DNA of 64,000 nt. It comes from Candidatus Poribacteria bacterium. Its GTDB lineage: Bacteria > Poribacteria > WGA-4E > WGA-3G. A program made the position numbers and the translations under genes. The notes under the pieces are model-generated. The model saw nothing but the letters and a program-made list of their open reading frames with translations, did no database searches and was not told the DNA's origin. This document shows positions 40-19,141 of this stretch, piece by piece. The stretch lies in NCBI GenBank assembly GCA_003635195.1, contig PYIY01000082.1, positions 20,533 to 84,532 on the forward strand. Direction: 5' to 3'. Numbering within the stretch: position 1 is the first letter of the stretch; every line of letters starts with the position of its first letter.

Positions 40-3000
40 GTTTCAATCTCGTAATCGAGATACTTTTCTTTTCAAGTCCGGGAATTCTGTTTACATCATC
101 GAACGCGATCTGTTTCAATCTCGTAATCGAGATACTTTTCTTTTTAAGTAGAAAATTGAGCGGGTGTTGACGTTCTTTACCGAAATGTTTCAATCTCGTA
201 ATCGAGATACTTTTCTTTTCAAGGCTCACACGCCCCTGCCCTCTTTATTCGCCTATCAAGTTTCAATCTCGTAATCGAGATACTTTTCTTTTCAAGTTAC
301 AAGCAATAGGATAGGTTGGGTTTACGAAATCACTGTTTCAATCTCGTAATCGAGATACTTTTCTTTTCAAGCAAAGCAATCTCAACCGTCCTATCGCTTG
401 ACCCTGTAGTTTCAATCTCGTAATCGAGATACTTTTCTTTTCAAGAACTTTACCGCTGGATTCAATAAAACCTGTCGGGTCTGAGTTTCAATCTCGTAAT
501 CGAGATACTTTTCTTTTCAAGACTGTCCCGGAAGTAGTTAGGCGTGCCGTCATAGAAGTTTCAATCTCGTAATCGAGATACTTTTCTTTTCAAGTAGGAC
601 TTCAGCAAAGGGGTCAGAGAACGACAAGGTAGGTTTCAATCTCGTAATCGAGATACTTTTCTTTTCAAGATCCGAAGTCACCACTGCTCGACCAGAACAA
701 CTACGTTTCAATCTCGTAATCGAGATACTTTTCTTTTCAAGTTAGGAGGTATTTATATGATAGGTTTCTTTGATCTCGAGTTTCAATCTCGTAATCGAGA
801 TACTTTTCTTTTCAAGTGAATTGTAAAAGTGCTGGTGTCCCGTATTTCTTTAGTTTCAATCTCGTAATCGAGATACTTTTCTTTTCAAGTCTTTGCTCAA
901 CGGGGATACGTCTTGTATCTGTTTGGTTTCAATCTCGTAATCGAGATACTTTTCTTTTCAAGCAGGGACTTTGGATACGGCAGGTGCAGCCGTAGGAATG
1001 TTTCAATCTCGTAATCGAGATACTTTTCTTTTCAAGTGTGTATCCATTCTCGATAATGGAATATGCTTTCGCTGTTTCAATCTCGTAATCGAGATACTTT
1101 TCTTTTCAAGTTGTGGACGACATTCCATTACCTGTTCCCGCACGTGTTGTTTCAATCTCGTAATCGAGATACTTTTCTTTTCAAGTGCAGGCAAGAATCA
1201 CCAGATGGAAAACGCTATCCGAGTTTCAATCTCGTAATCGAGATACTTTTCTTTTCAAGAAACATTTGGAGCTATAAGAAGGGCTGCACATGGCACGTTT
1301 CAATCTCGTAATCGAGATACTTTTCTTTTCAAGTGCTATAACCCGACCACTCGGATACAGGATAAATCTATGTTTCAATCTCGTAATCGAGATACTTTTC
1401 TTTTCAAGACAACAATTGTCGCTGAACCGACGCACACATTCCTGCGTTTCAATCTCGTAATCGAGATACTTTTCTTTTCAAGCATGTATCTCAAGGGAGA
1501 GGTGTGATACAGTTTCTCAGTTTCAATCTCGTAATCGAGATACTTTTCTTTTCAAGCCGATAGCGATGATGTACCGTATGCATCTATCGTTGGTTTCAAT
1601 CTCGTAATCGAGATACTTTTCTTTTCAAGGCAAGCAAAGCAAAGCGGAGCAACGCGAACAGGAAAAGTTTCAATCTCGTAATCGAGATACTTTTCTTTTC
1701 AAGGATAGCGTGACAGCGTCTTTGACTTCAAAGCGTAAAAGTTTCAATCTCGTAATCGAGATACTTTTCTTTTCAAGTGACGTAGCAGGCTTTGTTACCC
1801 ACGCCAGCAGGTTGTTTCAATCTCGTAATCGAGATACTTTTCTTTTCAAGATTTTCAGACCACTGATGAACAACACAGGATCGGTAAGTTTCAATCTCGT
1901 AATCGAGATACTTTTCTTTTCAAGAAACGGATGTTATCAACCGTAACGGTAGCGAATTTCTGTTTCAATCTCGTAATCGAGATACTTTTCTTTTCAAGTT
2001 CTGCGCGAAGTCGTTACCGCGGATAGGATTCAAGTTTCAATCTCGTAATCGAGATACTTTTCTTTTCAAGTTTTTCTTTAGGTATCATGCAACCCTTATT
2101 GTTTAAGTTTCAATCTCGTAATCGAGATACTTTTCTTTTCAAGGGGGTTATCATTCTCTCAATCTGTTTCGCTTATTGCTGTTTCAATCTCGTAATCGAG
2201 ATACTTTTCTTTTCAAGCCTCGTCTGGTATGCTCGTGAGAATAATATCGAATTGTTTCAATCTCGTAATCGAGATACTTTTCTTTTCAAGCATCTTCAAA
2301 CACTATATCATACAAATAGTAAGTAGTTTCAATCTCGTAATCGAGATACTTTTCTTTTCAAGAACGGATCCGCATCTAATGCACCTTCCTTTCGTTCTGT
2401 TTCAATCTCGTAATCGAGATACTTTTCTTTTCAAGACTGGATGCGACACAGAAGCATACTGCAGAATTCTTGTTTCAATCTCGTAATCGAGATACTTTTC
2501 TTTTCAAGTCAAATGCTTAGTATAGATCGTTTCATGACAGTCTGGTTTCAATCTCGTAATCGAGATACTTTTCTTTTCAAGTGGTTATTCTGAGGATGTT
2601 CTTTTTCCGTTTGATTAGTTTCAATCTCGTAATCGAGATACTTTTCTTTTCAAGCTATTGTTTACCCTACGACTGAGTGTTCTGATTACCGATGTTTCAA
2701 TCTCGTAATCGAGATACTTTTCTTTTCAAGCGAATAAGTTGCGAATTCGCAACCCTGTCGTCCTACACGCAGTTTCAATCTCGTAATCGAGATACTTTTC
2801 TTTTCAAGCTCACTGAAATACCAGCAGTTCAAACCCGGTGTACGAGTTTCAATCTCGTAATCGAGATACTTTTCTTTTCAAGCTTATTAACGCTTACAAC
2901 GACTTCACACTTGACAGGTTTCAATCTCGTAATCGAGATACTTTTCTTTTCAAGGAAAATGTTTCAGTTGGTGGTGAATTGAAATCTGTGGAGTTTCAAT

Positions 3001-6193: not shown

Positions 6194-6466
6194 TTACACG
6201 ATGTATGACTGTTCGTCAAGTCCTTTTTTTACGCCGATCCGGTTAATCTGTTTTTCACAGGCTCCACAGAGATGGTAAAATGTAATCGTATCCTCACTGA
6301 AATCGATCACCTTCTCCAATCGGTTCTGCAAGCGTAATAGGGCACGGCGATCCGTGTTGCACTCAAAGACACTAAACTGGATACGATTCCCAAAATCCTT
6401 CAGAATCTTGGCGACCTTGTTTCGACGTTTGTCATCGGTTATATCATAAGCGACTGTATAATGCAT
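6194..6466 (-). CDS. cas2: CRISPR-associated endoribonuclease-fold protein Cas2
   Basis: This is a small protein of about 90 residues starting MHYTVAYDITDDKRR, with the Cas2 ferredoxin-fold beta1 strand and its conserved Asp (YDI). It continues with the typical RIQFSVFEC segment of the second half. Cas2 forms the integration complex with Cas1 that inserts new spacers next to the leader. I chose the start at 6466 because GAGGAG lies 6 nt upstream; a longer in-frame start exists nine codons earlier but has no support. It is the last gene of the cas operon, separated from cas4-cas1 by about 230 bp that contain a transposon-end remnant. Confidence 0.95.
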   Translation of the reverse strand: MHYTVAYDITDDKRRNKVAKILKDFGNRIQFSVFECNTDRRALLRLQNRLEKVIDFSEDTITFYHLCGACEKQINRIGVKKGLDEQSYIV

Positions 6467-6479
6467 TGGTAACTCCTCA

Positions 6480-6660
6480 GTCAAGGTACCCACTACCTAA
6501 AGGTAGGGGCTTGTGCTTCATAGCAGTAAGCGTTTTTCTCTGAGAGAAACCCGTCTGACAACTGCTCCACAATAGCGGCCAAGCCAGCTATGCACCGAAG
6601 TGCCTGATCTTATACGGCATGTGATTTGTCAACGAGTGCGGACGTTACTCCTGCTACTCT
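6480..6660 (-). repeat. IS200/IS605-type right-end (omega-RNA-like) remnant
   Basis: On the minus strand this intergenic stretch contains GGCACTTCGGTGC, then a purine-rich linker, GAAGCACAAGCCCC and the hairpin CTACCTTTAGGTAG. This order resembles the 3' end of the guide RNA and right end of IS200/IS605 (TnpB) elements. No tnpA or tnpB coding sequence remains, so I regard it as a decayed end inserted between cas4-cas1 and cas2 and read in the same direction as the operon. The identification rests on general motif resemblance, not on an alignment. Confidence 0.4.
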
Positions 6661-6697: not shown

Positions 6698-8338
6698 TTA
6701 TCGAACCGTCAATGGCGTATATTGATCGATTTCACCTGTTAGGTATTTCGCCAAGAGCCGTACTTGCAATTCCATTGCACGCCGAAATGTGAGTTTATAC
6801 TTAAAAAGCGGATGCGTAATCGTCTCGTTTTTCCGCGTTTCGTAAGCCGTATAAAACACCTTCCGACGATGATCCTTGAGATACCAGCCACCGTGAGACT
6901 GCGTGAAATCATCAATCTTGATCCGCCGGTTATTGATGAGCGTAATCACGACGGAGTCCGCAATAATAGGACGGAATTCCTCCATCAAATCAAGGGCAAG
7001 GCACGGTTTGCCGTATTTCAACTGATGAAAGAAACCGACATAAGGATCCAACCCGACCGTCTGTATGGCTGAGATGATATCCGCTGTCAGCAGTGAATAC
7101 GCGAAACTTAACAGCGCATTCGTCGCATCCGCGGGTGGACGCCGACTTCGCCGTTGGAAATCAAAACCCATCTCTGATTTGAGCATAAAGTTGAATGCCC
7201 CGAAATATGCAGCAGAAGCGTTGCCTTCTATGCCCAGTAACCCTGAAAGTTCAGTCGCCTTGTCAATACGCTTCTCCATCGCTTGTATTGCCTTAATATT
7301 AGCGAGCAACGGTTCCAATGCTGAATCTGTGCTGTCTGGAGATTGCCATTTCCGGCGTTGGAGCATCATCCGCATGTTCGCCACTTTTCCGCGCACAAAC
7401 GCTTTCGAGAGGTCAAGGCAGGCATCTGGACTATTCGCGACTTTGTGTTGGGCACACCGCAACAACGAATTTCGGGACACTTGCGGGGTCAACGCGCCAT
7501 GATACCGTCCATAAGCAGAAAGAAACACAACAGGGATGCCCTCATGCAAGAGGGTCTGCATCGCAGGTGTGGTGAGGTTAACGTTGCCAGAGATAACGAC
7601 TTGGCCGAGATGGATAATCGGAATATCTCTAATAATCTCGTTTTCCCTCGCGACAAGGATACGTTCACCTGTCTTTTTGATAGCACATCCCGGTTCATCA
7701 ACATAAAGCACATTATCGACACCAAGCGCAGGTTTGATCCGTTTTGGACGCTCGTCTAACTCGTGGAGATAGGCGACTTCATCAGGGAGGCAGATTGGAC
7801 GGACACTACAACCGTTGCATCGATTATCATGAACCGGTTTCGGAATCTTTCTCGAATCCAAGAGCGAGCGTGCCTCTGCTACATAACGCAGCGTTGTCTC
7901 TCGGAGTTCGCTATCAAAAGGGACCTTCCGTCGCCGCTTAGAACCGATGTAGAAAACATAGCCGTGTGGAATCGAGATTCCTGTTTTCTCCTCTAATAAG
8001 AGTCCTTGTAAGCAGAGTTGTACTTGATCGTTTAGCCAATCGCCGGTGCCTGCTTTTTTGAATTCAATTGGATATGGGATGCCGTCTCTTTCTTCAACGA
8101 GGTCGGTGTAGCCGGAGACACCGAGTGCATCGGAGGCGAGGTATTGTCGGCGCGAAATGGTTTTGTCTCCTTTTTTCCGATCGGTCACGGCTGTATGGAC
8201 ATGCTCATGCTTGATTTTGCCTTCTTCAACGTGGTCGTTGACGACTTGATGCCCTTCAATCGATTCATAATAAAACCGTCGAGGACAAAACACGTAAGTA
8301 TTTACTTGTGAAAGTGGGATATAATTCTTCTCAGACAT
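6698..8338 (-). CDS. cas4-cas1: Cas4-Cas1 fusion protein
   Basis: This 546-residue protein joins two adaptation proteins. Residues about 1-195 are Cas4: a first cysteine in VFCPRRFYY, a RecB-like PIEFKK nuclease motif, and a terminal cluster CNGCSVRPIC for a 4Fe-4S centre. Residues about 205-546 are Cas1: the N-terminal beta domain (LYVDEPG) and the metal-binding triad in GIEGNASAAYF (Glu), GFFHQLKYG (His) and DLMEEFRP (Glu). Cas4 selects PAM-containing prespacers and Cas1 with Cas2 integrates them, so the fusion couples the two steps. GGAGCGG lies just upstream of the start codon. Both domains look intact. Cas4-Cas1 fusions are known from several type I systems. Confidence 0.96.
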   Translation of the reverse strand: MSEKNYIPLSQVNTYVFCPRRFYYESIEGHQVVNDHVEEGKIKHEHVHTAVTDRKKGDKTISRRQYLASDALGVSGYTDLVEERDGIPYPIEFKKAGTGDWLNDQVQLCLQGLLLEEKTGISIPHGYVFYIGSKRRRKVPFDSELRETTLRYVAEARSLLDSRKIPKPVHDNRCNGCSVRPICLPDEVAYLHELDERPKRIKPALGVDNVLYVDEPGCAIKKTGERILVARENEIIRDIPIIHLGQVVISGNVNLTTPAMQTLLHEGIPVVFLSAYGRYHGALTPQVSRNSLLRCAQHKVANSPDACLDLSKAFVRGKVANMRMMLQRRKWQSPDSTDSALEPLLANIKAIQAMEKRIDKATELSGLLGIEGNASAAYFGAFNFMLKSEMGFDFQRRSRRPPADATNALLSFAYSLLTADIISAIQTVGLDPYVGFFHQLKYGKPCLALDLMEEFRPIIADSVVITLINNRRIKIDDFTQSHGGWYLKDHRRKVFYTAYETRKNETITHPLFKYKLTFRRAMELQVRLLAKYLTGEIDQYTPLTVR

Positions 8339-8377: not shown

Positions 8378-9208
8378 CTACTGTATTCTTCTTGTTTGTC
8401 CCATCCCCATTGTTGTCTTATAGCCCGTGCCGCAATAGAATGCAAAGGCTGCTAAGCAATTGACGGTTCGGAGCAGCTCTGTATCCAGCGAATCTTCGGG
8501 ATAGAAAACACAAGCATAGGTGCCGACCCACCCAGATTCAATATGCTTTCCGAAGTGGAGTCTCTTCGATTTAGCATCGACGCTGGTCACCTGTCCATAC
8601 TCCGTAACGAATTCCAAGATTTCGGTTTTATCAAGTTTTATAGGTGCGAAGGCGTTCCACTTGTTAACCCAACTCTGATAGCACCGGACGATATCTACAT
8701 AATCCTCGTTGCGGGTTTTCTGACCGCGCGGGGTCATCCTACGGAAGGCGGTCGGCGAATAGAAACGGAAACTCATCCGGGTATCCGTTTTTGCGGATTG
8801 AACGAGTTCGGCGTAGGTTTCGCTTTTGCCCCAGCTGCGTTCCTCTGTAGCATGTGAGACCATCTGTCTTACCTGAAAGACTGCTTCTCCCAAGCGAATA
8901 GGCGGCATCGCCAGTGTCAAGAATGCTTTCCCGAAGTGTTGAAATAGCTCATCATCAAGAAAGGTGAATCGGAGTTTGCACTCGGTGCCTGCCCTGATAT
9001 GAAGTAGGTTATTACGTTTTTTCGCTTCAGCAATGAGCGGCGAAACGGTAAAAGGTTTTTGTGCTGCGTGGGCATGAACGGCTTCCGCAACCTCTGGATT
9101 GCTCTCTTTAAGGATAGAGAGGAACGCTGCGTGGGCATAATGTCCCATCGTTGGACGGAGTGTAACATCGGTTTCGGGTATGAGTGAGATGTGTGTGCTG
9201 ATCGGCAT
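8378..9208 (-). CDS. cas6: CRISPR pre-crRNA endoribonuclease Cas6
   Basis: This protein of about 276 residues sits between cas3' and cas4-cas1. The C-terminus ends in a glycine-rich segment (CGTGYKTTMGMGQTRR), the G-loop signature of Cas6-type RAMP proteins that bind and cut the repeat hairpin. The central region contains SFRFYSPTAFRR, also typical of Cas6. I place the start at 9208 (MPISTHISL) because GGAG lies 8 nt upstream; the longer frame would overlap the end of cas3'. It should cut the repeat RNA to leave the ATTGAAAC handle. The catalytic residue cannot be assigned from sequence alone, since Cas6 active sites vary. Confidence 0.9.
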   Translation of the reverse strand: MPISTHISLIPETDVTLRPTMGHYAHAAFLSILKESNPEVAEAVHAHAAQKPFTVSPLIAEAKKRNNLLHIRAGTECKLRFTFLDDELFQHFGKAFLTLAMPPIRLGEAVFQVRQMVSHATEERSWGKSETYAELVQSAKTDTRMSFRFYSPTAFRRMTPRGQKTRNEDYVDIVRCYQSWVNKWNAFAPIKLDKTEILEFVTEYGQVTSVDAKSKRLHFGKHIESGWVGTYACVFYPEDSLDTELLRTVNCLAAFAFYCGTGYKTTMGMGQTRRIQ

Positions 9209-9222
9209 GAGTGGGTCTCCTT

Positions 9223-11529
9223 TTACGTGGCAGCAGTTTGATCTTTCTCTTTCCATTTGCCTTGCAACTCTGCATGAATTAGAAACGCTTGGGATCCGAG
9301 AATTAATTGATACTCCTGTTGTCCATCATTAAAGGTTACATTCAGTGGATAGGAAAATTGTCCTCTCGTTTCAAGTATGTTGTTAAGGGCGTACTGATTT
9401 TCTCGCTTCGATAAAAGACATGTAATGTACCCTTTTTTCTTCAGAGCATCCTGCATTTCAAGCGGAACAGATTCCAATCGTAAGCCTTTTAATGCGGTGG
9501 GTCCCCAACAGTGTTGACGTTCAAAGGACTCTCGATCAATCCCACCAGCATCGTAATTGAATTGAACACGGGTTGGTGGCGTTTTTAAACGATTCGCCTG
9601 CACGAAAAATTCGCAATAATTTCCCCAATCTCCTGTGAGTTCATGATACTTTTCCTTTGTCGGAATAATGATAAACTCATAATGTGATAGAACATGAAAC
9701 AGGTCATATTCGGTGTGTTTTGCAGTATTCTGGAACAGATGATTCGGGTCATAGATACCGCAACGAATGCCGATGTCCGAACCGCGAAAGTTAAAGAGCG
9801 ACTGAATAGGGGTGTATTTCTGCTCCGCGTACGCAACAATTTCCGAGCGGTTGTTTTTGAGAAGTGTCGCAAGTATTACTTTCTCCTTTTCTTTTGGTAA
9901 CTGTTCAAAGGTTTCCAGTTCCCCTTTCATCCATGCTTGGTATCGACAGTAACTCCACGCAGTGCGTTCCCATTGATGTCGGATATAATCGTTGTAGGTA
10001 TTGTCTTTGAAAGCATTAATGACAATTTCATAGGTAACATGCCACTGAATTTTTTTAAACATTTCCTCAAATGTTGTGTCGCTCTGTGGTGCGAAAACCT
10101 GTTGGATTGTCTCAAAGAGTTCTTTAATTCTGTCTTGCCGTTCTTCAAGTGTTCGCCTATAAAGTTCGTAAAGCGGATAGAATGCCTCAAGCACTGCATA
10201 GGACTGAATGTAGTGGTAAAACTGGTTATCCTCTCCTAGCGACTCTTTAACGAGTGTTGCAAATTCTCGGCGGTCATAAGTTTTCTCTGGCTGTAATTGT
10301 GTGTGAAGTTTTCCTTGTACAAATGCGTGCGCAATGCTGGCGTGCGTGGTGTCATCCTTACCGAGCAATCTACCTGTCCGTCCAATCCGCTGTGTGAATT
10401 CTGATCCGTAAAGTGCGTCAAAACAGACGAAATCAATGTTCTGTCGTGATTTATCCATTTTTTTGAAATTATACCCGATGTCCACTGTAGGCGTTGCGAG
10501 AACAAGTGGAAACGACTCTGTTGCCTTACGTCTCTCATCTGTCGCGACTGCACCGGTGATCAATCCGATTTTTTCTCTCAATCCTGCCGCTTGTAGTGTC
10601 TGTTTAATTTCATTAATGGTTCGGAGAAAACTACTGATAATCGCGCCTTCTTTTCCTAAATGCAGCGGATCACTAATCCATTCAGGGTGCGCCTTAAGTA
10701 GATTCTGCATTTTGCCACTGTGTATTGTCAATTCAACTTCAGAAAGTGTCTGTATCTTTTCATAACTGTTGCTTTCAATTGGTTCATTGTTTGGGCTGAT
10801 GCTCTCATACTTTAACCCAATTGTGTCAAGATAAGCGAGTACCTTCTCATCGGGTGTTGCCGAAAGCAGGCAGACCTTCCGTTTGTTATTATCAAAGTAA
10901 CCAAATTCCTTAGACAGAATGAAAAACATCAGAAAGTTGGCGATCTGTTTGGCGTTGTAGTAGTGAAACTCGTCAACGACGATGTAGTTGAAATCTTGTA
11001 AGAAATGATGGAATAGGTTAGCCGTATCCAGTTTCGAGTAAACGCTGTAAAAGCAGAGGTAAAAAATATCGGGGTTTGTGACGAAAATTAAGGGAGCTTG
11101 CCGTGTTACCTTGGGAAAATAGGCACTCGGATTTTGGATCAATTCGTGCAGTTTTCTCGGATTTCTAAGACGATAACCGGGGTCATCAATGACTTCCCAT
11201 TCACGGAGTTTCTGACCCGTGACTTCAGCAACATAGAAATCCAATCCGTGTTCCTCAACAAACTCTCGAATGTCGTTTGCGTGTTGATGAATCAACTCGT
11301 TCGTCGGTGCGATGAACAAAACGTTATCGTTTTTCAAATCGAAAAGCTGGAGCAACGCAGCACGAGTTTTTCCTGTTCCTGTGTTGTAGGTGTTGATGAC
11401 AAGATCGTTTGTCTTGAGGGCATCATAGGTGCGTTGCTGATGGTAGAGTGGTGGGTGTTTTAAGCCAAGCTCATTTGTTGGACTAATTTTTTCATAGCCC
11501 GCGTTTAGATTAATCGTGATCTCTGACAT
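9223..11529 (-). CDS. cas3: Cas3' helicase of type I-D (no HD domain)
   Basis: This 768-residue superfamily 2 helicase has Walker A in TGTGKTRAAL, a DEFH box (VVDEFHYY), SATP motif III, ATPTVDIGYNF and the motif VI arginines in QRIGRTGR. There is no N-terminal HD nuclease domain. That is the hallmark of type I-D, where the HD nuclease is on Cas10d and the helicase acts alone as Cas3'. I place the start at 11529 (MSEITINLN), preceded by AGAGG; the upstream extension runs through an intergenic palindrome. It lies between csc1 and cas6 in the operon. It would be recruited after R-loop formation to unwind target DNA. Confidence 0.95.
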   Translation of the reverse strand: MSEITINLNAGYEKISPTNELGLKHPPLYHQQRTYDALKTNDLVINTYNTGTGKTRAALLQLFDLKNDNVLFIAPTNELIHQHANDIREFVEEHGLDFYVAEVTGQKLREWEVIDDPGYRLRNPRKLHELIQNPSAYFPKVTRQAPLIFVTNPDIFYLCFYSVYSKLDTANLFHHFLQDFNYIVVDEFHYYNAKQIANFLMFFILSKEFGYFDNNKRKVCLLSATPDEKVLAYLDTIGLKYESISPNNEPIESNSYEKIQTLSEVELTIHSGKMQNLLKAHPEWISDPLHLGKEGAIISSFLRTINEIKQTLQAAGLREKIGLITGAVATDERRKATESFPLVLATPTVDIGYNFKKMDKSRQNIDFVCFDALYGSEFTQRIGRTGRLLGKDDTTHASIAHAFVQGKLHTQLQPEKTYDRREFATLVKESLGEDNQFYHYIQSYAVLEAFYPLYELYRRTLEERQDRIKELFETIQQVFAPQSDTTFEEMFKKIQWHVTYEIVINAFKDNTYNDYIRHQWERTAWSYCRYQAWMKGELETFEQLPKEKEKVILATLLKNNRSEIVAYAEQKYTPIQSLFNFRGSDIGIRCGIYDPNHLFQNTAKHTEYDLFHVLSHYEFIIIPTKEKYHELTGDWGNYCEFFVQANRLKTPPTRVQFNYDAGGIDRESFERQHCWGPTALKGLRLESVPLEMQDALKKKGYITCLLSKRENQYALNNILETRGQFSYPLNVTFNDGQQEYQLILGSQAFLIHAELQGKWKEKDQTAAT

Positions 11530-11549
11530 AGCAAAACCTCTAAAGAACT

Positions 11550-11595
11550 TGTAGGGTGTGCTTGCAATTGTTCCATAGGCACGACACACCCTACA
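11550..11595. repeat. Intra-operon palindrome between csc1 and cas3'
   Basis: Inverted repeats TGTAGGGTGTG and CACACCCTACA (11-bp arms, 24-nt loop) lie between the csc1 stop and the cas3' start. A second, different palindrome lies between csc2 and csc1. Both resemble dispersed palindromic elements of this genome. They could act as mRNA-processing or attenuation hairpins in the operon, which is an inference. Confidence 0.7.
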
Positions 11596-11610: not shown

Positions 11611-12327
11611 CTAAAAATCGGTGTAAAATTGCATCTGTGCTGGTAGTAGCGTTTTATCACCATCCGCCAGTTCATAGAAATCCCCAGACAATTGGACTTG
11701 GCGAATTAGCGGTGCCGGGCGGATATTGAGCAGGTCGAACATGCCAATTTGTGTTTCAGACGGTAGATCGTTTGGATTCAGATAATCTCGGTAAGGCACG
11801 TCTTGGGCATGGACTTCGCGATAGTGCTGCTTGTAAGCAGAGATTTTCGCTTTGCTCATGAACTTACCGAGGCGGATATAACGCGGCACTCGAAATTCGT
11901 TACGGCTAGTGAGATAGAAAACCCCTTTGTTGCCTATAGACAGCAGCTTCAACCTTCCAATCTGTGGGAAATTCGTCGCCCGTGCCTTCAAGCGTGGATT
12001 GAAAATGCGTTCCCGATCGACTGAGATCGCGTTCTGTTCCATCTGATACCAATATGAATCAGAAAGGGCGTTGAATCGCGTGACCGTGAAACGTGGTTTT
12101 TCAGTCAATGTGCCGGGTGTAACATAGATACCCGCCTCGTTGAGTTTTTCCAAATCCTGAGCGTAGGTGATTTCAGCGTCGTTATGGTAACTTGCACTGC
12201 ACAATCCAAGCGCATAGGCGAGAGCGTAATTACCGATGACCGCTTCTGTCTGAAAGAAGTTGTTTACCTCGCGGCTGGCGAAAAAGAGATTTTCCATGAG
12301 TTGAAACTCACAACGATAAATATGCAT
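11611..12327 (-). CDS. csc1: Csc1, Cas5-like subunit of type I-D Cascade
   Basis: This protein of about 238 residues starts MHIYRCEFQLMENLFFASRE and then reads GNYALAYALGLC, the typical opening of Csc1/Cas5d RAMP proteins. In type I-D it caps the crRNA 5' handle and contributes to PAM-proximal contacts in the effector. I chose 12327 as the start because GGAGG lies 6 nt upstream; a longer frame of 15 more codons crosses a palindrome. It follows csc2 by 46 bp and precedes cas3' by about 80 bp on the same strand. The assignment rests on the start sequence, the size and the strict I-D gene order. Confidence 0.92.
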   Translation of the reverse strand: MHIYRCEFQLMENLFFASREVNNFFQTEAVIGNYALAYALGLCSASYHNDAEITYAQDLEKLNEAGIYVTPGTLTEKPRFTVTRFNALSDSYWYQMEQNAISVDRERIFNPRLKARATNFPQIGRLKLLSIGNKGVFYLTSRNEFRVPRYIRLGKFMSKAKISAYKQHYREVHAQDVPYRDYLNPNDLPSETQIGMFDLLNIRPAPLIRQVQLSGDFYELADGDKTLLPAQMQFYTDF

Positions 12328-12341
12328 AAGATACCTCCAAT

Positions 12342-12365
12342 GTAGGATAGGGTTACCTATCCTAC
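12342..12365. repeat. Intra-operon palindrome between csc2 and csc1
   Basis: Perfect 10-bp arms (GTAGGATAGG and CCTATCCTAC) flank the loop GTTA in the 46-bp gap between the csc2 stop and the csc1 start, just upstream of the csc1 Shine-Dalgarno sequence. There is no T-run, so it is not a classical terminator. It may adjust the ratio of csc2 to the downstream genes, or it may simply be a dispersed palindromic repeat. Confidence 0.75.
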
Positions 12366-12373
12366 GTTTCACG

Positions 12374-13345
12374 CTAGCGATAGAGTTCTGTAATGCTATC
12401 TAACAGCCCTTTCACCTCATCTGACGACGCGAATTTTTGCTGAATTTCACTAATTAAGGCAGTTATGTCAGACTCAGTGAGCGGTTGCACCGTGCCTATC
12501 ACTTCACCCGTTAACGCTCTAACCGCATCGGTAATCACTGATTCAACCTTGTTTTCGTCAAGTGGAAACTGTCTACCCTCTGGACCGAGACGGTCATAAA
12601 CACACTGCGTTAACTCCAAATTACTGAAGATCTCACAATCACTGAAAATGGCACCGACAAGGGTGTTCCGCATCTTGCCAAGCCGCGAGGAGATAGCCCC
12701 GTAACGACGACTCCGCAACACGTTCGCTATGACGTAGTGGATCTCGTCCACTGTCAAATCTTTGAGGGTCTGCATGTCAACGAACAGTGTTTCCGGCTTG
12801 ACATACTCATCCTCTTGAATGCTTGAGGATGCCTGTCCAGTAACCGGATCGCGCATTGTGTTGTTATCATATAGCGCGTTGAATGTCCGCTTTGCTGTGA
12901 CGGTTTGGTAGGGTAAAACGCTGAAGGCATCGTCCGTGATGACGCGAGATTTTTGCGCGCCACCGCCCCCGACAGCATAACCGTAAATCATGCAGTCAGC
13001 ACACTGTGCACATGGGTTGTTGCGATTGAGCGCGCAAATGTTTTCCTCTGTTGCGTCTCCAGTGTAGAATAGTAAGGCATGCTGTCGCAGGAGTTCGCGA
13101 CCTGTGCGCCGTTCAACAGCAGTCTGTTTACGTTTGCTAATCGTCACGCGAGAGATGGGATCGCGGTTTTCCTCCTCAAGTCCAGCGTGGACTGTATCTC
13201 GGCTTAACCCTTCACCAGAACCCTCTGTGCGGAAGATCATCTCTGATTCTGCCTTCCGTAACACAATTAGCGTCAGATAACGGCTCTGTGGAAAGTTTTC
13301 GTATTCATCGACTATAAAGTCAGTGTATTTATCAAGCGTACTCAT
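12374..13345 (-). CDS. csc2: Csc2, Cas7 backbone subunit of type I-D Cascade
   Basis: This 323-residue protein shows Csc2 features: YLTLIVLRKAESEMIFRTEG near the N-terminus, a four-cysteine cluster in NPCAQCADCMIYGYAVGGGGAQ that probably binds zinc, and RYGAISSRLGKMRNT near residue 230. Csc2 polymerises along the crRNA spacer to form the effector backbone. The start codon overlaps the cas10d stop in an ATGA junction with AGGAGG upstream, so the two are translationally coupled. Multiple copies of this subunit are needed per complex. Nothing in the sequence looks damaged. Confidence 0.95.
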   Translation of the reverse strand: MSTLDKYTDFIVDEYENFPQSRYLTLIVLRKAESEMIFRTEGSGEGLSRDTVHAGLEEENRDPISRVTISKRKQTAVERRTGRELLRQHALLFYTGDATEENICALNRNNPCAQCADCMIYGYAVGGGGAQKSRVITDDAFSVLPYQTVTAKRTFNALYDNNTMRDPVTGQASSSIQEDEYVKPETLFVDMQTLKDLTVDEIHYVIANVLRSRRYGAISSRLGKMRNTLVGAIFSDCEIFSNLELTQCVYDRLGPEGRQFPLDENKVESVITDAVRALTGEVIGTVQPLTESDITALISEIQQKFASSDEVKGLLDSITELYR

Positions 13346-16224
13346 GATTGTTGTTCCTCCTTGTCTCTATCGCGTTTTGGAATCATTTCGGTAATAAAAT
13401 AAAGATATCCAGAACGAATCCGTTTTCGGTTTTCAAGCAAGTTAAGCAAATTGCCTTGATAAACGCCTTTGTAGATATGATCAAAAAGAACGGTGACAAA
13501 TTGCGAGATGTTCTCCAATTTTTTCGCGCCAAAGAACCGCTTATCAAGACGCTCAATCGCTCGAGCGACCTCTTTAGACATAATAGCCCGCGCCTCTTCT
13601 TCGGTTTCATGCTCCGACTGCCAGCGTTCAAGGCTGTCAAAGGCAACATCAAGTGGTTTGGCGAGTGAATTATCTTTGAGACTGTCGCCCTTCAACTGCC
13701 CTTCCCACGCAATACGAGCGAGTTCTTTAATGTGAGACATAATCGTATCTCCTCCTTTCTGTGCCACGACATCGGCAATAAGTTGCACAGTGTCGCGGAC
13801 GGTTACGAACTGTCGCGGTTCATTTCCGGCTTGTTCGCGTTTAATCATTCGGTGGGTTACATAGTAGAGTTCAAGTACATCGTAATTTAAACTCCGAATC
13901 AAACGTACCAGATCATCCGTGTCAATACTTCCGATTTTCGATCGGATAGTATGCAACTTGAGCAGTTGTTCAAATACTTGTTGAGTTATATCATGGTTGA
14001 GATTGTTATCCGGCAACCATCCCCGAAATGCGGGAGGGATATGGTCGATGAAAAGGTGGCTGAATTCATCGCTGGAAAAGAGTGGAATCGACGAATCGGT
14101 CAGCACTGCCCGGCACCCTAAAAAGCGTTGATATAACAAAGCATTTTCAATGGCAAATAAAATATTCTCTGTATGATTGTTCCCAGGCGTATTAACCGGA
14201 ATCGTTAAAATGTTTCCAAGTGCCTCCGAGAACTTCGGCAGTGGATTTCCGTTGACTTTCGTTCGTGAAAACGTTAATTCCAACTGTGTCCTTTCCTGAT
14301 AACTCCGGAGAACATCGTCTGTCTTGAGAAACACGGACGGAAAATCAGGATTGTGGAATTTTTCCTGTGCTCGTTGAAAAGCTCGAATAAAAACATCAGT
14401 AAAAAAGGAAATTGGGTACAGATGGATAAAAAACGTCGCTGTGCTACCGCCGACATTGTAACAGAGTTTGTTAAGCATGTATTGGGTTCGGCATACACTA
14501 CAGACGCGGCGTTTCGGCTCACGTGATGATCCACCTTCAAGCCGATTGGAAAACTGTTGCACCTTGATATTCGCTGGTACATCTGGTTTCATCCACAATG
14601 CTGTATCAAATTCGGAACCGCAGGTACTACACTGAACGTGGTTATCCTCAACATAACGTTTTAGGTTTATGTCAAAACCTCGTTTCCTATCAGCAACAAA
14701 GTTGAAATCAACGTATTTGAGAACGTAATCGACCAACAGTCCAAATTCGCTTTCGGTTTCTAAAGTCCCTAACAATTGGGTGCCGTCTTGGACAATCAAC
14801 GCGTAAATCTCATCAAACTCACGACCGGCATTGTGAAGATCGCGTCCGATGATGTAGCCGCGGTCCCAAAGGGCATTAAATAATGCATATCGCTCACGAT
14901 AGGCTGTATCCTCAGCATTCAATGGCAATTCAAGCAGTCCGTAGATATGTAACCACGCGTCGGTGACGGTCTCAGAGAAATGCTTATTCAGGAAGATATA
15001 GTATGTTCTCACCAACTCCCCGATCCGCATAGCGTCATCATCGGGGGGTAGCCGGTAGGTTTCCGTATCTAAGATTTCACCGAGCAGCGTCCGCTGTCCA
15101 ACCGTTCCTTCTGGGGTAAAAAGAGGTGGTTGTTCACCTTGCTGCTCAACGGCATTCGGATCCGGCTCGCCCAATTTATCTCGAATTCCCTCAAGTCTTT
15201 CCCGACACTTTATGTTCATGGCATCCACTTTCGCGTTTGCGACGTACTTGCGCTCGCTGATGATATTTCGGACTTCATTCCAAATTTCTGCGAAAGATAC
15301 GCCGAGTGCAATACACTTTTCATCAACTTTTATACCGGCGGGGCTGCCTTGAATAAACTTGATGAATTCTCCACGAGTTTTTGACTCAATAGTATGGACA
15401 ACAGCGTTTCCAATTTCAGCAATTTCATCAGTTGTGATGTGGATGTCGCGTTCCCGATCAACAAGATACGCTACACCATCAGGATAATAAAGCAGCGGTA
15501 GCAAATCTTTTTCCGATTCCAGATACTTCACAATCTCGTTGTGTATAAGGTTCGTCAGAATACCGCGCTGTTCGCTTACTTTATGGTATACGAATTTGTA
15601 CTGAACATCACAGATACTGTTGATTTCCAAAAGAAAATCTCGTTTCTTTGGACGTTCCTCAAGCGTTTTCGAGAGGTCAATCACATCTATCGCTCGGATG
15701 ATCGGGACCAGGTAGTTTAGGAGTCTGTCTTTATCCAGCGAATATGGATCGTAACGCTGATCAAGGGTTTCACCGTAGGTGTTATGGAAGCGTGAATGGG
15801 CACGGACCAGGACCTCAATATCCTTCAAATAATCTTGCCATTCCGGGAAGAAGTGATCTATCTCAAGATCCGCCAATACGCCACTAATGTTTTCAGCGTT
15901 TGCCAAATAGTTAAACGAACGCTTTGTTTCCTGAAATTCTTCAAGCTTGTTCAGATCGTGGACGCTGAAAGCACCGAATAGAACCTGGATCTCAAAGTCT
16001 GTCAAATCCAAAATTGGACGTAACCGTTCCAAGACACAAATCCCGTTAAGAATGTGGAGGTAGAGCGATTCACCAGCTTTCGCGCCATATTGGATAATTT
16101 CCTGATAGGCACGCAATTTTCGGTTGGCGATTTTGTCCATATAACTTTGAAAGAGGTTCTCCGTATCCGAATCAATTCCAAAGGTAAATAATAAATCTTC
16201 AATTTCGGATTTCCGTTTTGCCAT
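13342..16224 (-). CDS. cas10d: Cas10d (Csc3), large subunit and HD nuclease of type I-D
   Basis: This protein of about 960 residues is the first gene of the cas operon. An HD motif sits at residues 89-90 (FSVHDLNKLEEF), consistent with the type I-D arrangement in which the nuclease is on Cas10d instead of Cas3. Mid-protein there are two CxxC pairs (CSTCGSEFD and CSVCRTQY), probably a zinc site. No GGDD cyclase motif is visible, as expected for I-D. I chose the start at 16224 because AGGAG lies 6 nt upstream, whereas the longer frame (16293) extends into the promoter region. It forms the large subunit and probably recognises the PAM with Csc1. Confidence 0.95.
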   Translation of the reverse strand: MAKRKSEIEDLLFTFGIDSDTENLFQSYMDKIANRKLRAYQEIIQYGAKAGESLYLHILNGICVLERLRPILDLTDFEIQVLFGAFSVHDLNKLEEFQETKRSFNYLANAENISGVLADLEIDHFFPEWQDYLKDIEVLVRAHSRFHNTYGETLDQRYDPYSLDKDRLLNYLVPIIRAIDVIDLSKTLEERPKKRDFLLEINSICDVQYKFVYHKVSEQRGILTNLIHNEIVKYLESEKDLLPLLYYPDGVAYLVDRERDIHITTDEIAEIGNAVVHTIESKTRGEFIKFIQGSPAGIKVDEKCIALGVSFAEIWNEVRNIISERKYVANAKVDAMNIKCRERLEGIRDKLGEPDPNAVEQQGEQPPLFTPEGTVGQRTLLGEILDTETYRLPPDDDAMRIGELVRTYYIFLNKHFSETVTDAWLHIYGLLELPLNAEDTAYRERYALFNALWDRGYIIGRDLHNAGREFDEIYALIVQDGTQLLGTLETESEFGLLVDYVLKYVDFNFVADRKRGFDINLKRYVEDNHVQCSTCGSEFDTALWMKPDVPANIKVQQFSNRLEGGSSREPKRRVCSVCRTQYMLNKLCYNVGGSTATFFIHLYPISFFTDVFIRAFQRAQEKFHNPDFPSVFLKTDDVLRSYQERTQLELTFSRTKVNGNPLPKFSEALGNILTIPVNTPGNNHTENILFAIENALLYQRFLGCRAVLTDSSIPLFSSDEFSHLFIDHIPPAFRGWLPDNNLNHDITQQVFEQLLKLHTIRSKIGSIDTDDLVRLIRSLNYDVLELYYVTHRMIKREQAGNEPRQFVTVRDTVQLIADVVAQKGGDTIMSHIKELARIAWEGQLKGDSLKDNSLAKPLDVAFDSLERWQSEHETEEEARAIMSKEVARAIERLDKRFFGAKKLENISQFVTVLFDHIYKGVYQGNLLNLLENRKRIRSGYLYFITEMIPKRDRDKEEQQS

Positions 16225-16303
16225 GATGTCTCCTTTCCAATTGCGTTGATTTGGGCTGATGTATAATCGCGCAAACCGGCAATTGATTTTCAATCTTCCT
16301 TAA

Positions 16304-16453: not shown

Positions 16454-16566
16454 GTGTAATCACTTGCAGAAGTAAAGTAGCAGCCGAAAACTGTTGCGTA
16501 TGCCGAGCTGCTTATCGACCAGTCGGTAAGATAGGTTGCCCACCTTTTCACCAAGGTGGTTTTCTG
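16454..16566 (+). ncRNA. Structured RNA unit A (cassette 1)
   Basis: The core is 16468-16566, one of four paralogous ~100-nt units. Conserved blocks are AGAAGTAAA, GCAGCCGAAAACT, a palindromic hairpin (CTTATCGACC with AGTCGGTAAG), the block ATAGGTTGCCC, and a terminal hairpin CCACCTT / AAGGTGG followed by TTTTCTG. GCAGCC can pair with the invariant GGTTGC to close a junction. It starts downstream of a strong promoter. I do not recognise the family. Conservation of hairpin pairing, not of codons, between the four copies marks it as RNA. Confidence 0.75.
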
Positions 16567-16603
16567 CCGGAGAACAGACATCTAAAAACATTAGATGAGA
16601 ATC

Positions 16604-16703
16604 AGAAGTAAAATCGCAGCCGAAAACTGTTGCGTATGCCATGTTGCCTGTTAAGCCGGTTAGCAGGCTAGGTTGCCCACCCTCTCACCAAGGTGGTTTT
16701 CTG
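16604..16703 (+). ncRNA. Structured RNA unit B (cassette 1)
   Basis: This is the second copy in cassette 1, after a 37-bp linker that carries a small hairpin (CATCTAA / TTAGATG). The variable hairpin here is CCTGTTAA with TTAGCAGG, different in sequence from unit A but still paired, which is compensatory change. The terminal hairpin is CCACC / GGTGG plus TTTTCTG. It is probably co-transcribed with unit A, since no promoter is visible in the linker. Confidence 0.72.
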
Positions 16704-16897: not shown

Positions 16898-17010
16898 GAT
16901 AATTCACTTGCAGAAGTAAAGTAGCAGCCGAAAACTATTGCGTAGGCTGAGCTGCCTACCGACCGGTCGGTAGGATAGGTTGCCCACCTTCTCGCTAAGG
17001 TGGTTTTCTG
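16898..17010 (+). ncRNA. Structured RNA unit C (cassette 2)
   Basis: The core is 16912-17010. The variable hairpin is the perfect palindrome CTACCGACCGGTCGGTAG. The terminal hairpin is CCACCTT / AAGGTGG plus TTTTCTG. The blocks GCAGCCGAAAACT and ATAGGTTGCCC match the other three copies. It is the first unit downstream of promoter 2. Confidence 0.75.
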
Positions 17011-17019
17011 TCGGTTCCC

Positions 17020-17118
17020 AGAAGTAAAATCGCAGCCGAAAACTATTGCGTAGGCTGAGTTGTCTCCTGGCCGGCTGGGAGAATAGGTTGCCCACTCTCT
17101 GACGAGGGTGGTTTTCTG
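17020..17118 (+). ncRNA. Structured RNA unit D (cassette 2)
   Basis: This is the fourth copy, starting only 10 bp after unit C. The variable hairpin is CTCCTGGCCGGCTGGGAG, again self-complementary with changed bases. The terminal hairpin is CCACTCT / AGGGTGG, with changes on both arms relative to units A-C, followed by TTTTCTG. It ends right at the stop codon of the convergent DUF3800 gene, so its hairpin could serve as terminator for both strands. Confidence 0.72.
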
Positions 17119-17120: not shown

Positions 17121-17720
17121 TTAAAGTTCAACAAGACTACCGCGTTGCTTTGCCTCCGAAAAAAGTGTCTCAAGATCAGGAGCTTGGTGCTTAAGCAATT
17201 CCCCTGCAGCACCAGCTAGGGCATCGGCTAATCGGATGAGAGGTTCATTTTCATCTTTTGAAACTCGAATTACCTTTTTTACCGGAAAGCCGAGTTGACG
17301 TAAGCCCGTTTTATAAGCACTACGTTTGGCTTTTGCCAGACCGTCAACATAAACGTACACATGAGAATTAGAAGGGCTTAACCTGAGTATTGCTTTCGCA
17401 ATACCATCAATTGTTGCAGCATCGTAATCTGTCCTTTTACGGAAGACACTATAAAACAACGTGACGTTGAGAGTGGCCGCCTTTTGAATCACAGCACGTA
17501 GGTAGTCCAAACGTCTACTTCTTTCTGAAGATGCCCACTTCTTTTTTCTCTTGCCCGAAGTTTCTTCAAAAGATTCACAAAGTTGACGAAGTTTATCACT
17601 GTCCTCTACCGCTACCACAGCGACGATGAACAATCGGCCTCTTGTATCTTGTCCAGATTCGTCAATGTAGAGGTCCACGCGTTTTTGATTTGCAACCACT
17701 GGTTTGGTGTTGCTGCCCAT
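17121..17720 (-). CDS. DUF3800 protein, putative target of a CRISPR-guided repressor
   Basis: This 199-residue protein shows DUF3800 features: LYIDESGQ near the N-terminus, HVYVYVDGLAK mid-protein and RLADALAGAAGELLK near the C-terminus, with acidic residues arranged as in RNase H-like folds. DUF3800 proteins are widespread, often near mobile or defence genes, and their activity is mostly unknown; a nuclease role is plausible but not shown. The start at 17720 has no good Shine-Dalgarno sequence. It has its own near-consensus promoter, and its transcription start overlaps a protospacer-like site matched by the crRNA-like gene just upstream. It may be a toxin or backup effector released when the CRISPR complex fails. 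That role is an inference. Confidence 0.85.
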   Translation of the reverse strand: MGSNTKPVVANQKRVDLYIDESGQDTRGRLFIVAVVAVEDSDKLRQLCESFEETSGKRKKKWASSERSRRLDYLRAVIQKAATLNVTLFYSVFRKRTDYDAATIDGIAKAILRLSPSNSHVYVYVDGLAKAKRSAYKTGLRQLGFPVKKVIRVSKDENEPLIRLADALAGAAGELLKHQAPDLETLFSEAKQRGSLVEL

Positions 17721-17744: not shown

Positions 17745-17765
17745 GCATACGAAAACACTAATAAC
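17745..17765 (-). promoter_or_regulatory. Protospacer-like site with GTT PAM at DUF3800 transcription start
   Basis: On the minus strand GTT (17763-17765) is followed by ATTAGTGTTTTCGTATGC (17745-17762). The pseudo-spacer of the upstream crRNA-like gene begins ATTAGAGTTTTCGTATGC. The two agree at 17 of 18 positions, and the single mismatch is at guide position 6, which type I complexes flip out and do not read. GTN is the reported type I-D PAM. Beyond position 18 the match breaks down (3 of the next 11), which would favour binding without full cleavage. Confidence 0.8.
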
Positions 17766-17772
17766 ATAATAT

Positions 17773-17801
17773 AGTATAACTGCATTTTGTGGAAATGTCA
17801 A
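17773..17801 (-). promoter_or_regulatory. Strong sigma-70 promoter of the DUF3800 gene
   Basis: TTGACA (17796-17801) and TATACT (17773-17778) on the minus strand are separated by exactly 17 bp. The expected start is at about 17765-17767, giving a 5' leader of about 45 nt. The protospacer-like site starts at this position, so a bound Cascade would block initiation or early elongation. Confidence 0.85.
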
Positions 17802-17802
17802 A

Positions 17803-17910
17803 TTTTTTATCTCGTAATCGAGAATCTTTTTGTTAAAATGTCGAAATGCGGCATACGAAAACTCTAATTTTTCAATCTCGCCCTCAAGAATCTTATTTGC
17901 CACAATCGTA
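17803..17910 (-). ncRNA. Stand-alone crRNA-like gene (CreA/CreR-type) with degenerate repeats
   Basis: Two degenerate copies of the array repeat lie in array orientation: the first at 17869-17905 (22 of 37 identical) and the second at 17803-17839 (27 of 37). They flank a 29-nt pseudo-spacer at 17840-17868. The first copy ends CGAGATTGAAAA, so the 5' handle is kept except for its last base, and its hairpin is kept through a G-U pair (TCTTG / CGAGA). The second copy keeps the full CTCGATTACGAG hairpin. Cas6 could therefore process it to one crRNA. A perfect promoter places the RNA start about 5 nt before the first repeat. CreA antitoxin RNAs and CreR autoregulators have this layout in other type I systems. 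Confidence 0.82.
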
Positions 17911-17916: not shown

Positions 17917-17945
17917 ATTATATATCGCTGAGATTGGTCTGTCAA
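17917..17945 (-). promoter_or_regulatory. Consensus promoter of the crRNA-like gene
   Basis: On the minus strand TTGACA (17940-17945) and TATAAT (17917-17922) are separated by exactly 17 bp, a perfect consensus sigma-70 promoter. Transcription would begin near 17909-17911, just ahead of the first degenerate repeat. No other gene could use this promoter without first transcribing the repeats. Confidence 0.88.
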
Positions 17946-18007: not shown

Positions 18008-19027
18008 TTACAAATCCTCAGCGTAGATTCCATGCATCCGGCGTACAATCTCGCCAAATTCCGCCCGGAATTCTGGTGGGTCCAAGACCTCTACCGCATC
18101 GCCGAGACTCAATACCCAAAATGTGAAGTCTTCTTTCGGGACCTCATAACGGACAATCACAGATCCATCTGGGCACCGTTCTATAATCTCTTGTGACCGA
18201 TGCCGTTCCTTTTCCGTAATGAGATACGCTTTGTGTGCCGCGATTTTGAGCGTCACGGTAATCGGATCCCCGCTAAAGAGTTCCCATCGAGAATCCAAAT
18301 TTTCGGACAATGAGAAATCTGGAGGGGGCTCAAACGTTTCCTCTGTCAATTCAACTTCCTGAAAGCGGAGGATTTTGAAGGTAAGAGACACATTCTCTGA
18401 TAAATTAGAGTGCGCCTCAAGATACCAATCATCTTTACGGAAAAAGATAGCATACGGGTGGAGCATATGTTCAATAGGGTCTGTTTTCCCACCCGGTAGA
18501 TAACTTGCACGCACCGCCCTTCGAGTTAGAAGTGCTTTCTCCAGCACGCCAAAATATCCATCACTCTCAGTGTGAAATCTATCTGATTTAAGCTGGATTG
18601 AGACGCTGTCGCTTTGGAGATAGTCCGATTCTGCCTCACGAAGAGTGTTTGCTTCCTTTTCTTGTAGTGCCTTTTCAATGTACCTCGCAAGTGGTGGGTG
18701 CAGTCTTTCCAAAAGGCTTTTGAGAGACTTGGAAAAACGCTGCTGCTTTGCAAGGGGTGAAGCCTCAATCACCAATTTCAGATTCCGAGCTTCTTCCTTT
18801 GTAATACGAGGGGAAGGCATCTTGCGTTGCCCACGAATTCTATAGAAGCTCTGCCTTTTTTCCACAATGTAGTACTCTTCCAGAATCTTCAGATCGCTAT
18901 AGATACGGCTTTGATCAACATCATACAATCTTGCTAATGTAGCAACCTTCATGCCTGAAGATCTTTCCAGCGTCCTGACTAGATCCAAGATACGCTGTAC
19001 CTGTTTTCTACCATCACTATATCCCAT
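18008..19027 (-). CDS. WYL-domain transcriptional regulator
   Basis: This protein of about 339 residues has an N-terminal winged-helix segment (VATLARLYDVDQSRIYSDLKILEEYY) and a C-terminal WYL domain (RRAVRASYLPGGKT...LHPYAIFFRKDDWYLEAHS), then a WCX-like C-terminus. WYL proteins bind small or nucleic acid ligands and often regulate CRISPR-Cas and other defence genes. One is known next to CRISPR loci in cyanobacteria. I place the start at 19027 (MGYSDGRKQ), with AGGAG 6 nt upstream. It sits just upstream of the crRNA-like gene, the DUF3800 gene and the cas operon on the same strand, so it probably controls one or more of them. Confidence 0.88.
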   Translation of the reverse strand: MGYSDGRKQVQRILDLVRTLERSSGMKVATLARLYDVDQSRIYSDLKILEEYYIVEKRQSFYRIRGQRKMPSPRITKEEARNLKLVIEASPLAKQQRFSKSLKSLLERLHPPLARYIEKALQEKEANTLREAESDYLQSDSVSIQLKSDRFHTESDGYFGVLEKALLTRRAVRASYLPGGKTDPIEHMLHPYAIFFRKDDWYLEAHSNLSENVSLTFKILRFQEVELTEETFEPPPDFSLSENLDSRWELFSGDPITVTLKIAAHKAYLITEKERHRSQEIIERCPDGSVIVRYEVPKEDFTFWVLSLGDAVEVLDPPEFRAEFGEIVRRMHGIYAEDL

Positions 19028-19090
19028 ATCTTTCTCCTTTTGAATAGCTGTCAGAACCTCTCCAGCCAAACGGAAACAATCAGATATAAC

Positions 19091-19126
19091 TATGTTAAGC
19101 ATAACATAAGAAAATATCCAATGCAA
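19091..19126 (-). promoter_or_regulatory. Promoter and palindromic operator candidate of the WYL gene
   Basis: On the minus strand TTGCAT (19121-19126) and TATGCT (19098-19103) are separated by 17 bp. A perfect inverted repeat, TATGTTA / TAACATA with a 4-nt spacer (19091-19108), covers the -10 box. This is a natural site for autorepression. The same half-site TATGTTA occurs between the -10 box and start of the DUF3800 promoter (17762-17768). Confidence 0.55.
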
Positions 19127-19141
19127 ATACCTCTTAGCCAA

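What the first reader, a model, noticed from the sequence alone, without database searches (positions are those of the whole stretch)
17745..17868. The pseudo-spacer seed matches the DUF3800 start site with an I-D PAM and a mismatch only at guide position 6
Seen in sequence: guide bases 1-18 (ATTAGAGTTTTCGTATGC) match minus-strand 17745-17762 at 17 of 18 positions, and the match begins exactly at spacer base 1. GTT sits at the PAM position; GTN is the reported I-D PAM. The lone mismatch is at position 6, which type I complexes do not pair. After position 18 the match falls to 3 of 11. Partial, seed-limited pairing is what represses without destroying the host chromosome in CreTA and CreR. The site overlaps the start of a strong promoter. 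Inference: the I-D effector represses DUF3800. A local duplication might be the origin of the spacer but does not explain the PAM or the exact boundary.
Basis: partly seen in the sequence, partly recalled or inferred. Interest (0 to 1): 0.95.

Follow-up and report, generated by a model that had tools for sequence, protein, structure and literature searches.

The report
CRISPR-guided off-switch for nuclease-like gene
Beside a bacterial CRISPR system lies a tiny two-repeat CRISPR-like element whose spacer matches the predicted promoter region of a neighbouring gene for a predicted RNase-H-type nuclease, and spacer and target have changed together in related bacteria, so the CRISPR complex likely holds that gene off and would release it when CRISPR is disabled.

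Summary
In detail: guide bases 1-18 match 17745-17762 (minus) at 17 of 18 beside GTT, with the one mismatch at position 6. The site starts 10 nt after the -10 box of an 11/12 sigma-70 match. In 12 loci (two in this genome; every named record is Poribacteria), guide bases 1-5 and 7-11 match the target at 117 of 120 positions. Seed positions 3, 4, 7 and 9 change in guide and target together, while positions 6 and 12 match in only 5 and 4 of 12. The PAM is GTN in 11 of 12. This is the published CreA pairing rule, so it works like a CreA antitoxin. The regulated gene is a DUF3800 protein with an RNase HII-like predicted fold, not an RNA toxin (CreTA) or a KilA-N protein (CrePA). The element persists beside three effector sets (two divergent I-D, one I-B) and two DUF3800 subfamilies. 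Full-length DUF3800 is present in 9 of 12 loci with the guide and 0 of 12 assessable WYL-linked loci without it, but DUF3800 genes do exist elsewhere without a guide. Repression, nuclease activity, toxicity and trigger are inferred.

The parts
17917..17945 (-). predicted sigma-70 promoter of the mini-array (TTGACA-17-TATAAT, 12/12)
17869..17905 (-). degenerate first repeat (22/37) keeping a pairable stem and the handle ATTGAAAA
17840..17868 (-). pseudo-spacer (guide), 29 nt; bases 1-18 are 17851-17868
17803..17839 (-). degenerate second repeat (27/37) keeping the stem TCTCGATTACGAGA but not the handle
17773..17801 (-). predicted DUF3800 promoter (TTGACA-17-TATACT, 11/12)
17763..17765 (-). PAM GTT
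   Evidence: GTN as I-D PAM from passages of PMC10212523 and PMC9123187
17745..17762 (-). target: 17 of 18 match to the guide, mismatch at position 6
17121..17720 (-). DUF3800 gene, 199 aa, RNase HII-like predicted fold
   Evidence: PF12686 E 3.9e-9; model pLDDT 90.4; best PDB match RNase HII, E 5.5e-6, TM 0.55
16467..16566 (+). structured RNA copy 1
16603..16703 (+). structured RNA copy 2
16911..17010 (+). structured RNA copy 3
17019..17118 (+). structured RNA copy 4
13342..16293 (-). csc3/cas10d (longest ORF; the true start may lie further in)
12374..13345 (-). csc2/cas7d
11611..12372 (-). csc1/cas5d
9223..11589 (-). cas3d helicase
8378..9256 (-). cas6
6698..8338 (-). cas4-cas1 fusion
6194..6493 (-). 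presumed cas2, named by position; conserved at the same place in relatives, not scanned against a library
40..5855 (-). main CRISPR array, 79 repeats (78 identical, one with a single change)
18008..19141 (-). WYL-domain regulator gene

Best explanation
A mini-array of two degenerate CRISPR repeats carries a spacer whose bases 1-5 and 7-11 match DNA just upstream of the DUF3800 gene beside a GTT motif, and since spacer and target co-vary in relatives, the type I effector loaded with the predicted guide RNA likely sits there and represses DUF3800. Pairing that stops near base 18 would be too short to trigger destruction of the host DNA (inferred from CreTA). If the effector is lost, blocked by an anti-CRISPR protein or drawn away by other crRNAs, the strong predicted promoter would be freed and DUF3800, predicted to be an RNase H-type nuclease, would be made; by analogy with CreTA and CrePA it would then arrest or kill the cell, or act as a back-up defence (inferred, untested). 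Shown: anatomy, seed match, PAM, co-variation, position relative to promoter-like sequence, loss pattern. Inferred: transcription and Cas6 processing of the guide, effector binding, repression, nuclease activity, toxicity and trigger.
For: (1) 12 loci: guide 1-5 and 7-11 match the target at 117 of 120 positions; reassigning guides to targets gives mean 106.5 and at most 115 in 20,000 trials. Positions 3, 4, 7 and 9 co-vary (five double changes, counting the two sister loci at position 7 once); positions 6 and 12 match in 5 and 4 of 12. Published mutants of haloarchaeal CreA give the same rule, with 6 and 12 free (PMC8501985, passages). (2) PAM GTT in 9, GTG, GTC and GCT in one each; GTN is the reported I-D PAM (PMC10212523 and PMC9123187, passages). 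(3) In 12 of 12 loci the mini-array and the target each have a sigma-70-like promoter scoring 9-12 of 12, with guide base 1 lying 9-15 nt after the -10 box. (4) The first-repeat stem pairs 4/4 in 10 of 12 loci, with compensated arms CTCG/CGAG, CTTG/CAAG and CTCA/TGAG. (5) The element is kept while effectors are exchanged: I-D set 1 in 4 loci, I-D set 2 in 4, I-B in 2, unknown in 2, and with two DUF3800 subfamilies (10 and 2 loci). (6) Full-length DUF3800 ORF in 9 of 12 loci with the guide and 0 of 12 assessable WYL-linked loci without it, p 3e-4 uncorrected for ancestry. (7) dN/dS 0.10-0.24 in 9 pairs compared, several with saturated dS.
Against: No expression, binding or toxicity data. L004 has PAM GCT and L010 only 8 of 10 seed matches, a score that 47 of 300 shuffles of its own downstream DNA reach (L006: 9 of 10, 10 of 300). 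Targets were located as the best seed match to their own guide, which favours the true pairing somewhat. DUF3800 is disrupted in 2 of the 12 guide-bearing loci (L005, L008). Intact DUF3800 genes exist without a guide or cas genes in the stretches held, in G047 and G011:C26, as do more distant DUF3800 genes with no mini-array seen upstream, so the protein need not be toxic as such. In one published transposon screen a DUF3800 gene itself scored as essential, not as a toxin would (PMC7811196, passage). A single deletion can remove guide and DUF3800 together, so the loss pattern is weaker than it looks. The PAM of this system could not be checked from protospacers. Sequences come mostly from metagenome assemblies.
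Confidence: 0.72

Rival explanations
1. The repression is real, but DUF3800 is not a toxin: it would be an accessory nuclease (in crRNA metabolism or a second line of defence) whose level the effector adjusts.
For: DUF3800 proteins are encoded in some type V and VI CRISPR loci and have been suggested to act in interference or crRNA metabolism (PMC10910872 and PMC12669027, passages). DUF3800 genes are tolerated without a guide elsewhere, and one scored essential in a transposon screen (PMC7811196, passage).
Against: No assessable WYL-linked locus without the guide keeps an intact DUF3800 (0 of 12), which a harmless accessory gene does not predict.
Confidence: 0.2
2. The guide-target match is a local duplication, kept alike by gene conversion, without function.
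For: The two copies lie about 100 nt apart, and a spacer taken from the promoter could be the origin.
Against: Matching stays at 12 of 12 for positions 1-5 and 7-9 but falls to 5 and 4 of 12 at positions 6 and 12; conversion cannot skip single bases. The match starts at spacer base 1 with GTN beside it in 11 of 12 loci.
Confidence: 0.03
3. The guide is a CreR-type regulator of the cas operon, and DUF3800 is only the first gene on its way.
For: It lies upstream of the cas operon on the same strand; CreR RNAs act on cas promoters in I-B, I-E and V-A systems (PMC13131331, passage).
Against: The only exact PAM-plus-seed site in the window is the DUF3800 promoter (one further one-mismatch site at 5972-5985). 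About 830 bp with opposing RNA genes lie between the end of DUF3800 and the csc3 ORF. Outside the window the genome has 3 exact seed sites on other contigs, against 2 for the reversed control.
Confidence: 0.05

Closest known systems
CreTA (type VIII toxin-antitoxin; CreA guide RNA)
   Same: Guide between two degenerate repeats next to a cas operon; seed 1-5 and 7-11; positions 6 and 12 free; PAM beside the target; target in the promoter of the neighbouring gene.
   Different: The regulated gene is a conserved protein of about 200 aa, not a small RNA toxin; effectors are I-D or I-B; toxicity unknown.
CrePA (protein toxin CreP repressed by CreA)
   Same: A protein-coding gene under a crRNA-like guide (known to me only from section 3.3 of the review PMC12737573; the original paper was not readable).
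   Different: DUF3800 with an RNase HII-like predicted fold instead of KilA-N; structured RNA copies beside the gene; exchange of effectors.
CreR (guide RNA that represses cas genes)
   Same: crRNA-like guide with limited pairing to a promoter.
   Different: The matched promoter belongs to DUF3800, not to cas genes.
DUF3800 proteins with neighbouring ncRNAs (Rfam DUF3800 motifs) and in V-A2 and VI-F loci
   Same: DUF3800 beside a structured RNA, or beside cas genes (passages).
   Different: The RNA here reaches no Rfam family's gathering score; the CRISPR type is I-D or I-B; a guide matches the gene's promoter.

Membership tests
CreTA | spacer-like guide between two degenerate CRISPR repeats | tested here: met
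   22/37 and 27/37 to the array repeat; two stems and a handle in relatives (the script missed the second stem of L015)
CreTA | seed 1-5 and 7-11 paired to a promoter beside a PAM, positions 6 and 12 free | tested here: met
   117 of 120; 5 and 4 of 12 at positions 6 and 12; GTN in 11 of 12
CreTA | the repressed toxin is a small RNA | tested here: not met
   199-aa DUF3800 ORF, dN/dS 0.10-0.24 in 9 pairs
CreTA | Cas6-processed guide, repression by the effector, toxicity on effector loss | not testable with these tools
   needs RNA and growth data
CrePA | a protein gene is the repressed partner | tested here: met
   full-length DUF3800 ORF in 9 of 12 loci, one more open to the end of held DNA
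CrePA | toxin with KilA-N domain | tested here: not met
   the only Pfam match is DUF3800
CrePA | release of the toxin by anti-CRISPR proteins | not testable with these tools
   needs an experiment
CreR | guide pairs to the cas promoter | tested here: not met
   one exact PAM-plus-seed site in the window, at DUF3800
DUF3800 RNase H-fold proteins | DUF3800 profile and RNase H fold | tested here: met
   PF12686; RNase HII best match, E 5.5e-6, TM 0.55
DUF3800 RNase H-fold proteins | nuclease activity | not testable with these tools
   needs an assay
type III toxin-antitoxin (tandem RNA antitoxin) | tandem structured RNA that binds and silences the neighbouring protein | tested here: inconclusive
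   tandem, covarying RNA beside DUF3800, but convergent with its own promoter-like sites; binding not testable

The most novel reading that the evidence does not exclude
A transferable CRISPR dead-man switch: one crRNA-like guide, read by three different effector complexes (two divergent I-D sets and I-B), holds down an interchangeable DUF3800-plus-structured-RNA defence unit and sets free a nuclease with its own RNA partner when the effector fails.
Probability: 0.45. Interest if true: 0.92.

Novelty: new variant of a known kind. Interest (0 to 1): 0.83.

Why it matters
If true, it extends CRISPR-guided repression of cellular genes to type I-D, to a new protein family and to an uncultured phylum, with natural co-variation showing the pairing rule (1-5 and 7-11; 6 and 12 free) that had been mapped by mutation in haloarchaea. 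It gives the unexplained DUF3800 family, and the RNAs beside it, a condition under which they would act: failure of CRISPR. The exchange of effectors around a constant guide, cas6 and cas4-cas1 suggests what such a switch needs. It can be tested with a reporter in laboratory E. coli.

Tried and rejected
Duplication or gene conversion: rejected because positions 6 and 12 are free. cas-promoter target: no second exact site in the window. A first target search over 18 bases picked other places in 4 loci (L006, L008, L010, L015), whose targets carry an extra base after about position 11; it was replaced by a search on bases 1-11. Rfam: none at gathering score, four hits at E up to 10 far below their families' cut-offs. 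PAM from spacers: 524 spacers collected from the fetched loci gave only 3 short non-array hits of 16-20 nt, and the array has no match in the phage collection. Of the 30 loci, 10 were read as mini-arrays; the other 20 were taken for main-array repeats or chance hits from their matched ranges and were not opened one by one, and that call had more matches than it listed. Loci without a guide were judged from 800 nt downstream of WYL and a pattern scan that finds 10 of the 12 known mini-arrays and misses L007 and L008. G037 (contig end) was left out of the loss count. L047 has no WYL in the DNA held but is counted among the 12 guide-bearing loci.

Full report
What is there. The window carries a type I-D cas operon on the minus strand (csc3, csc2, csc1, cas3d, cas6, cas4-cas1) and downstream of it an array with 79 repeats in the window. 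Upstream of the operon lie four copies of a structured RNA on the plus strand, then, on the minus strand, DUF3800, a two-repeat mini-array and a WYL gene. The mini-array has its own promoter-like sequence with 12 of 12 consensus bases, a degenerate first repeat that keeps a stem and the handle ATTGAAAA, a 29-nt spacer, and a degenerate second repeat that keeps the stem but not the handle. The promoter-like sequence before DUF3800 begins where the second repeat ends. Guide base 1 of the target lies 10 nt after its -10 box, so a bound complex would cover the expected transcription start.

Is it chance? With up to 3 mismatches the 18-mer occurs at two places in the window (0.01 expected); in the genome, with up to 2 mismatches, the only other place is a second pseudo-spacer on contig C29. 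The C29 locus (L002, L033) has the same layout with another DUF3800 (215 aa) and the remains, to the contig end, of a second I-D effector set. Its guide reads ATTAGAATTTTCGTATGC and its target GTG-ATTAGTATTTTAGTATAA: mismatches at 6, 12, 17 and 18, and position 7 changed on both sides.

Co-variation. A search of 145 related genomes with the mini-array gave 10 mini-arrays on reading. A search of 84 genomes of the phylum with DUF3800 added L058. Targets in these 12 loci were located mechanically as the best match to guide 1-11 in the 240 nt downstream. Positions 1-5 and 7-9 match in all 12, position 10 in 11, position 11 in 10, positions 6 and 12 in 5 and 4. Four seed positions co-vary in five double changes (position 3 in L058; 4 in L009 and in L015; 7 in the sister loci L003 and L004; 9 in L010). 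Guides reassigned to other targets never reach the observed 117 of 120 (maximum 115 in 20,000). The PAM is GTT in 9, GTG, GTC and GCT in one each. Shuffles of each locus's downstream DNA reach its seed score in 0 or 1 of 300 for ten loci, 10 of 300 for L006 and 47 of 300 for L010. The same pairing rule was found by mutation for haloarchaeal CreA (PMC8501985, abstract, passages and one section).

Interchangeable parts. In 10 of the 12 loci effector genes are held: I-D set 1 in 4 (window, L034, L037, L041), I-D set 2 in 4 (L033, L035, L039, L040), I-B in 2 (L038, L133); L006 and L047 end before them. In the aligned parts csc3 is 22-29% identical between the sets, while in the 8 relatives where they are held cas6 is 62-89% and cas4-cas1 82-94% identical to the window's. 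The window's DUF3800 subfamily is present in 10 loci, the other in 2 (L026, L006).

Loss pattern. Of the 12 guide-bearing loci, 9 have a full-length DUF3800 ORF, one is open to the end of the DNA held (L047), and two are disrupted (L005, L008). One search found WYL relatives in 23 of 84 genomes; 13 of these loci show no mini-array and 12 could be assessed (G015, G005, G004, G032, G019, G025, G018, G012, G016:C111, G038 and the more distant G075 and G064). None has an intact DUF3800 there: G004 and G038 keep shortened genes, G012 a C-terminal remnant, G019 a tail that I read by eye. Fisher for 9/12 against 0/12 gives p 3e-4, without correction for ancestry or for single deletions that take both. 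Against a strict addiction reading, intact DUF3800 genes without a guide exist outside CRISPR in G047 and G011:C26. In G027 the PAM is GCT, the -35 box TTGGCA, and Glu21, invariant in the 43-sequence alignment, is Lys; repression and active site may have decayed together, but this is one case.

The protein. The model (43 sequences, mean pLDDT 90.4) matches RNase HII best (E 5.5e-6, TM 0.55, rmsd 5.5), a moderate fold match. The DESG motif resembles the DEAG motif of RNase HII as I recall it; no residue-level superposition was made. dN/dS is 0.10-0.24 in the 9 pairs compared, with dS saturated in several.

The neighbouring RNA. Thirty-five distinct copies of 98-111 nt were found in the DNA fetched; 11 of 27 consensus pairs have at least one compensated change. 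A model built from them finds it in 24 of 84 genomes under stricter filters. In the loci opened it lies beside DUF3800 or beside WYL or cas genes, except one copy in G056 with no recognised neighbour in 3.1 kb. It also stays in loci that lack DUF3800, so its role is open. DUF3800 had been linked to RNAs before (PMC10910872 and PMC11701678, passages).

What is known. In the library searched, DUF3800 with CRISPR appears in 2 papers and DUF3800 in 11; in the passages read of 5 of these none describes guide control. Searches on CreTA, CreR, CrePA and type I-D showed no I-D example in listings or passages seen. The original CrePA and CreR papers were not read; CrePA is taken from section 3.3 of a review (PMC12737573). 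Other papers were seen in passages only: PMC12669027, PMC13131331, PMC9458426, PMC10212523, PMC9123187, PMC7657543, PMC7811196. The element works like a CreA system, fails the RNA-toxin feature of CreTA and the KilA-N feature of CrePA, and is filed as a new variant of CRISPR-guided repression.

Noticed in passing
16467-16566, 16603-16703, 16911-17010, 17019-17118 (+): Four copies of an undescribed structured RNA of about 100 nt, in two pairs each behind a sigma-70-like promoter (16419 and 16863), converging on DUF3800; found in 24 of 84 Poribacteria genomes.
   Followed up: partly
L033-L041, L133, L134, L137: Poribacteria exchange whole type I effector sets (two I-D sets whose csc3 is 22-29% identical, and I-B) while cas6, cas4-cas1 and the position of WYL are kept.
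   Followed up: partly
L002, L083, L094, L135: The second DUF3800 subfamily, or its remnant, is followed by a different short conserved RNA-like hairpin (GCAGGACTGAACCC...GGCCCTGC).
   Followed up: no
L064, L066, L074: More distant DUF3800 genes (34-38% identity) are also followed by another conserved RNA-like stretch.
   Followed up: no
L079, L080 (G015, G005): WYL and the structured RNA lie beside another HTH/WYL-like gene, and the cas6 search finds no cas6 in these two genomes.
   Followed up: no
L004, L034 (G027): PAM GCT, -35 box TTGGCA and a Glu21Lys change in DUF3800 occur together.
   Followed up: partly
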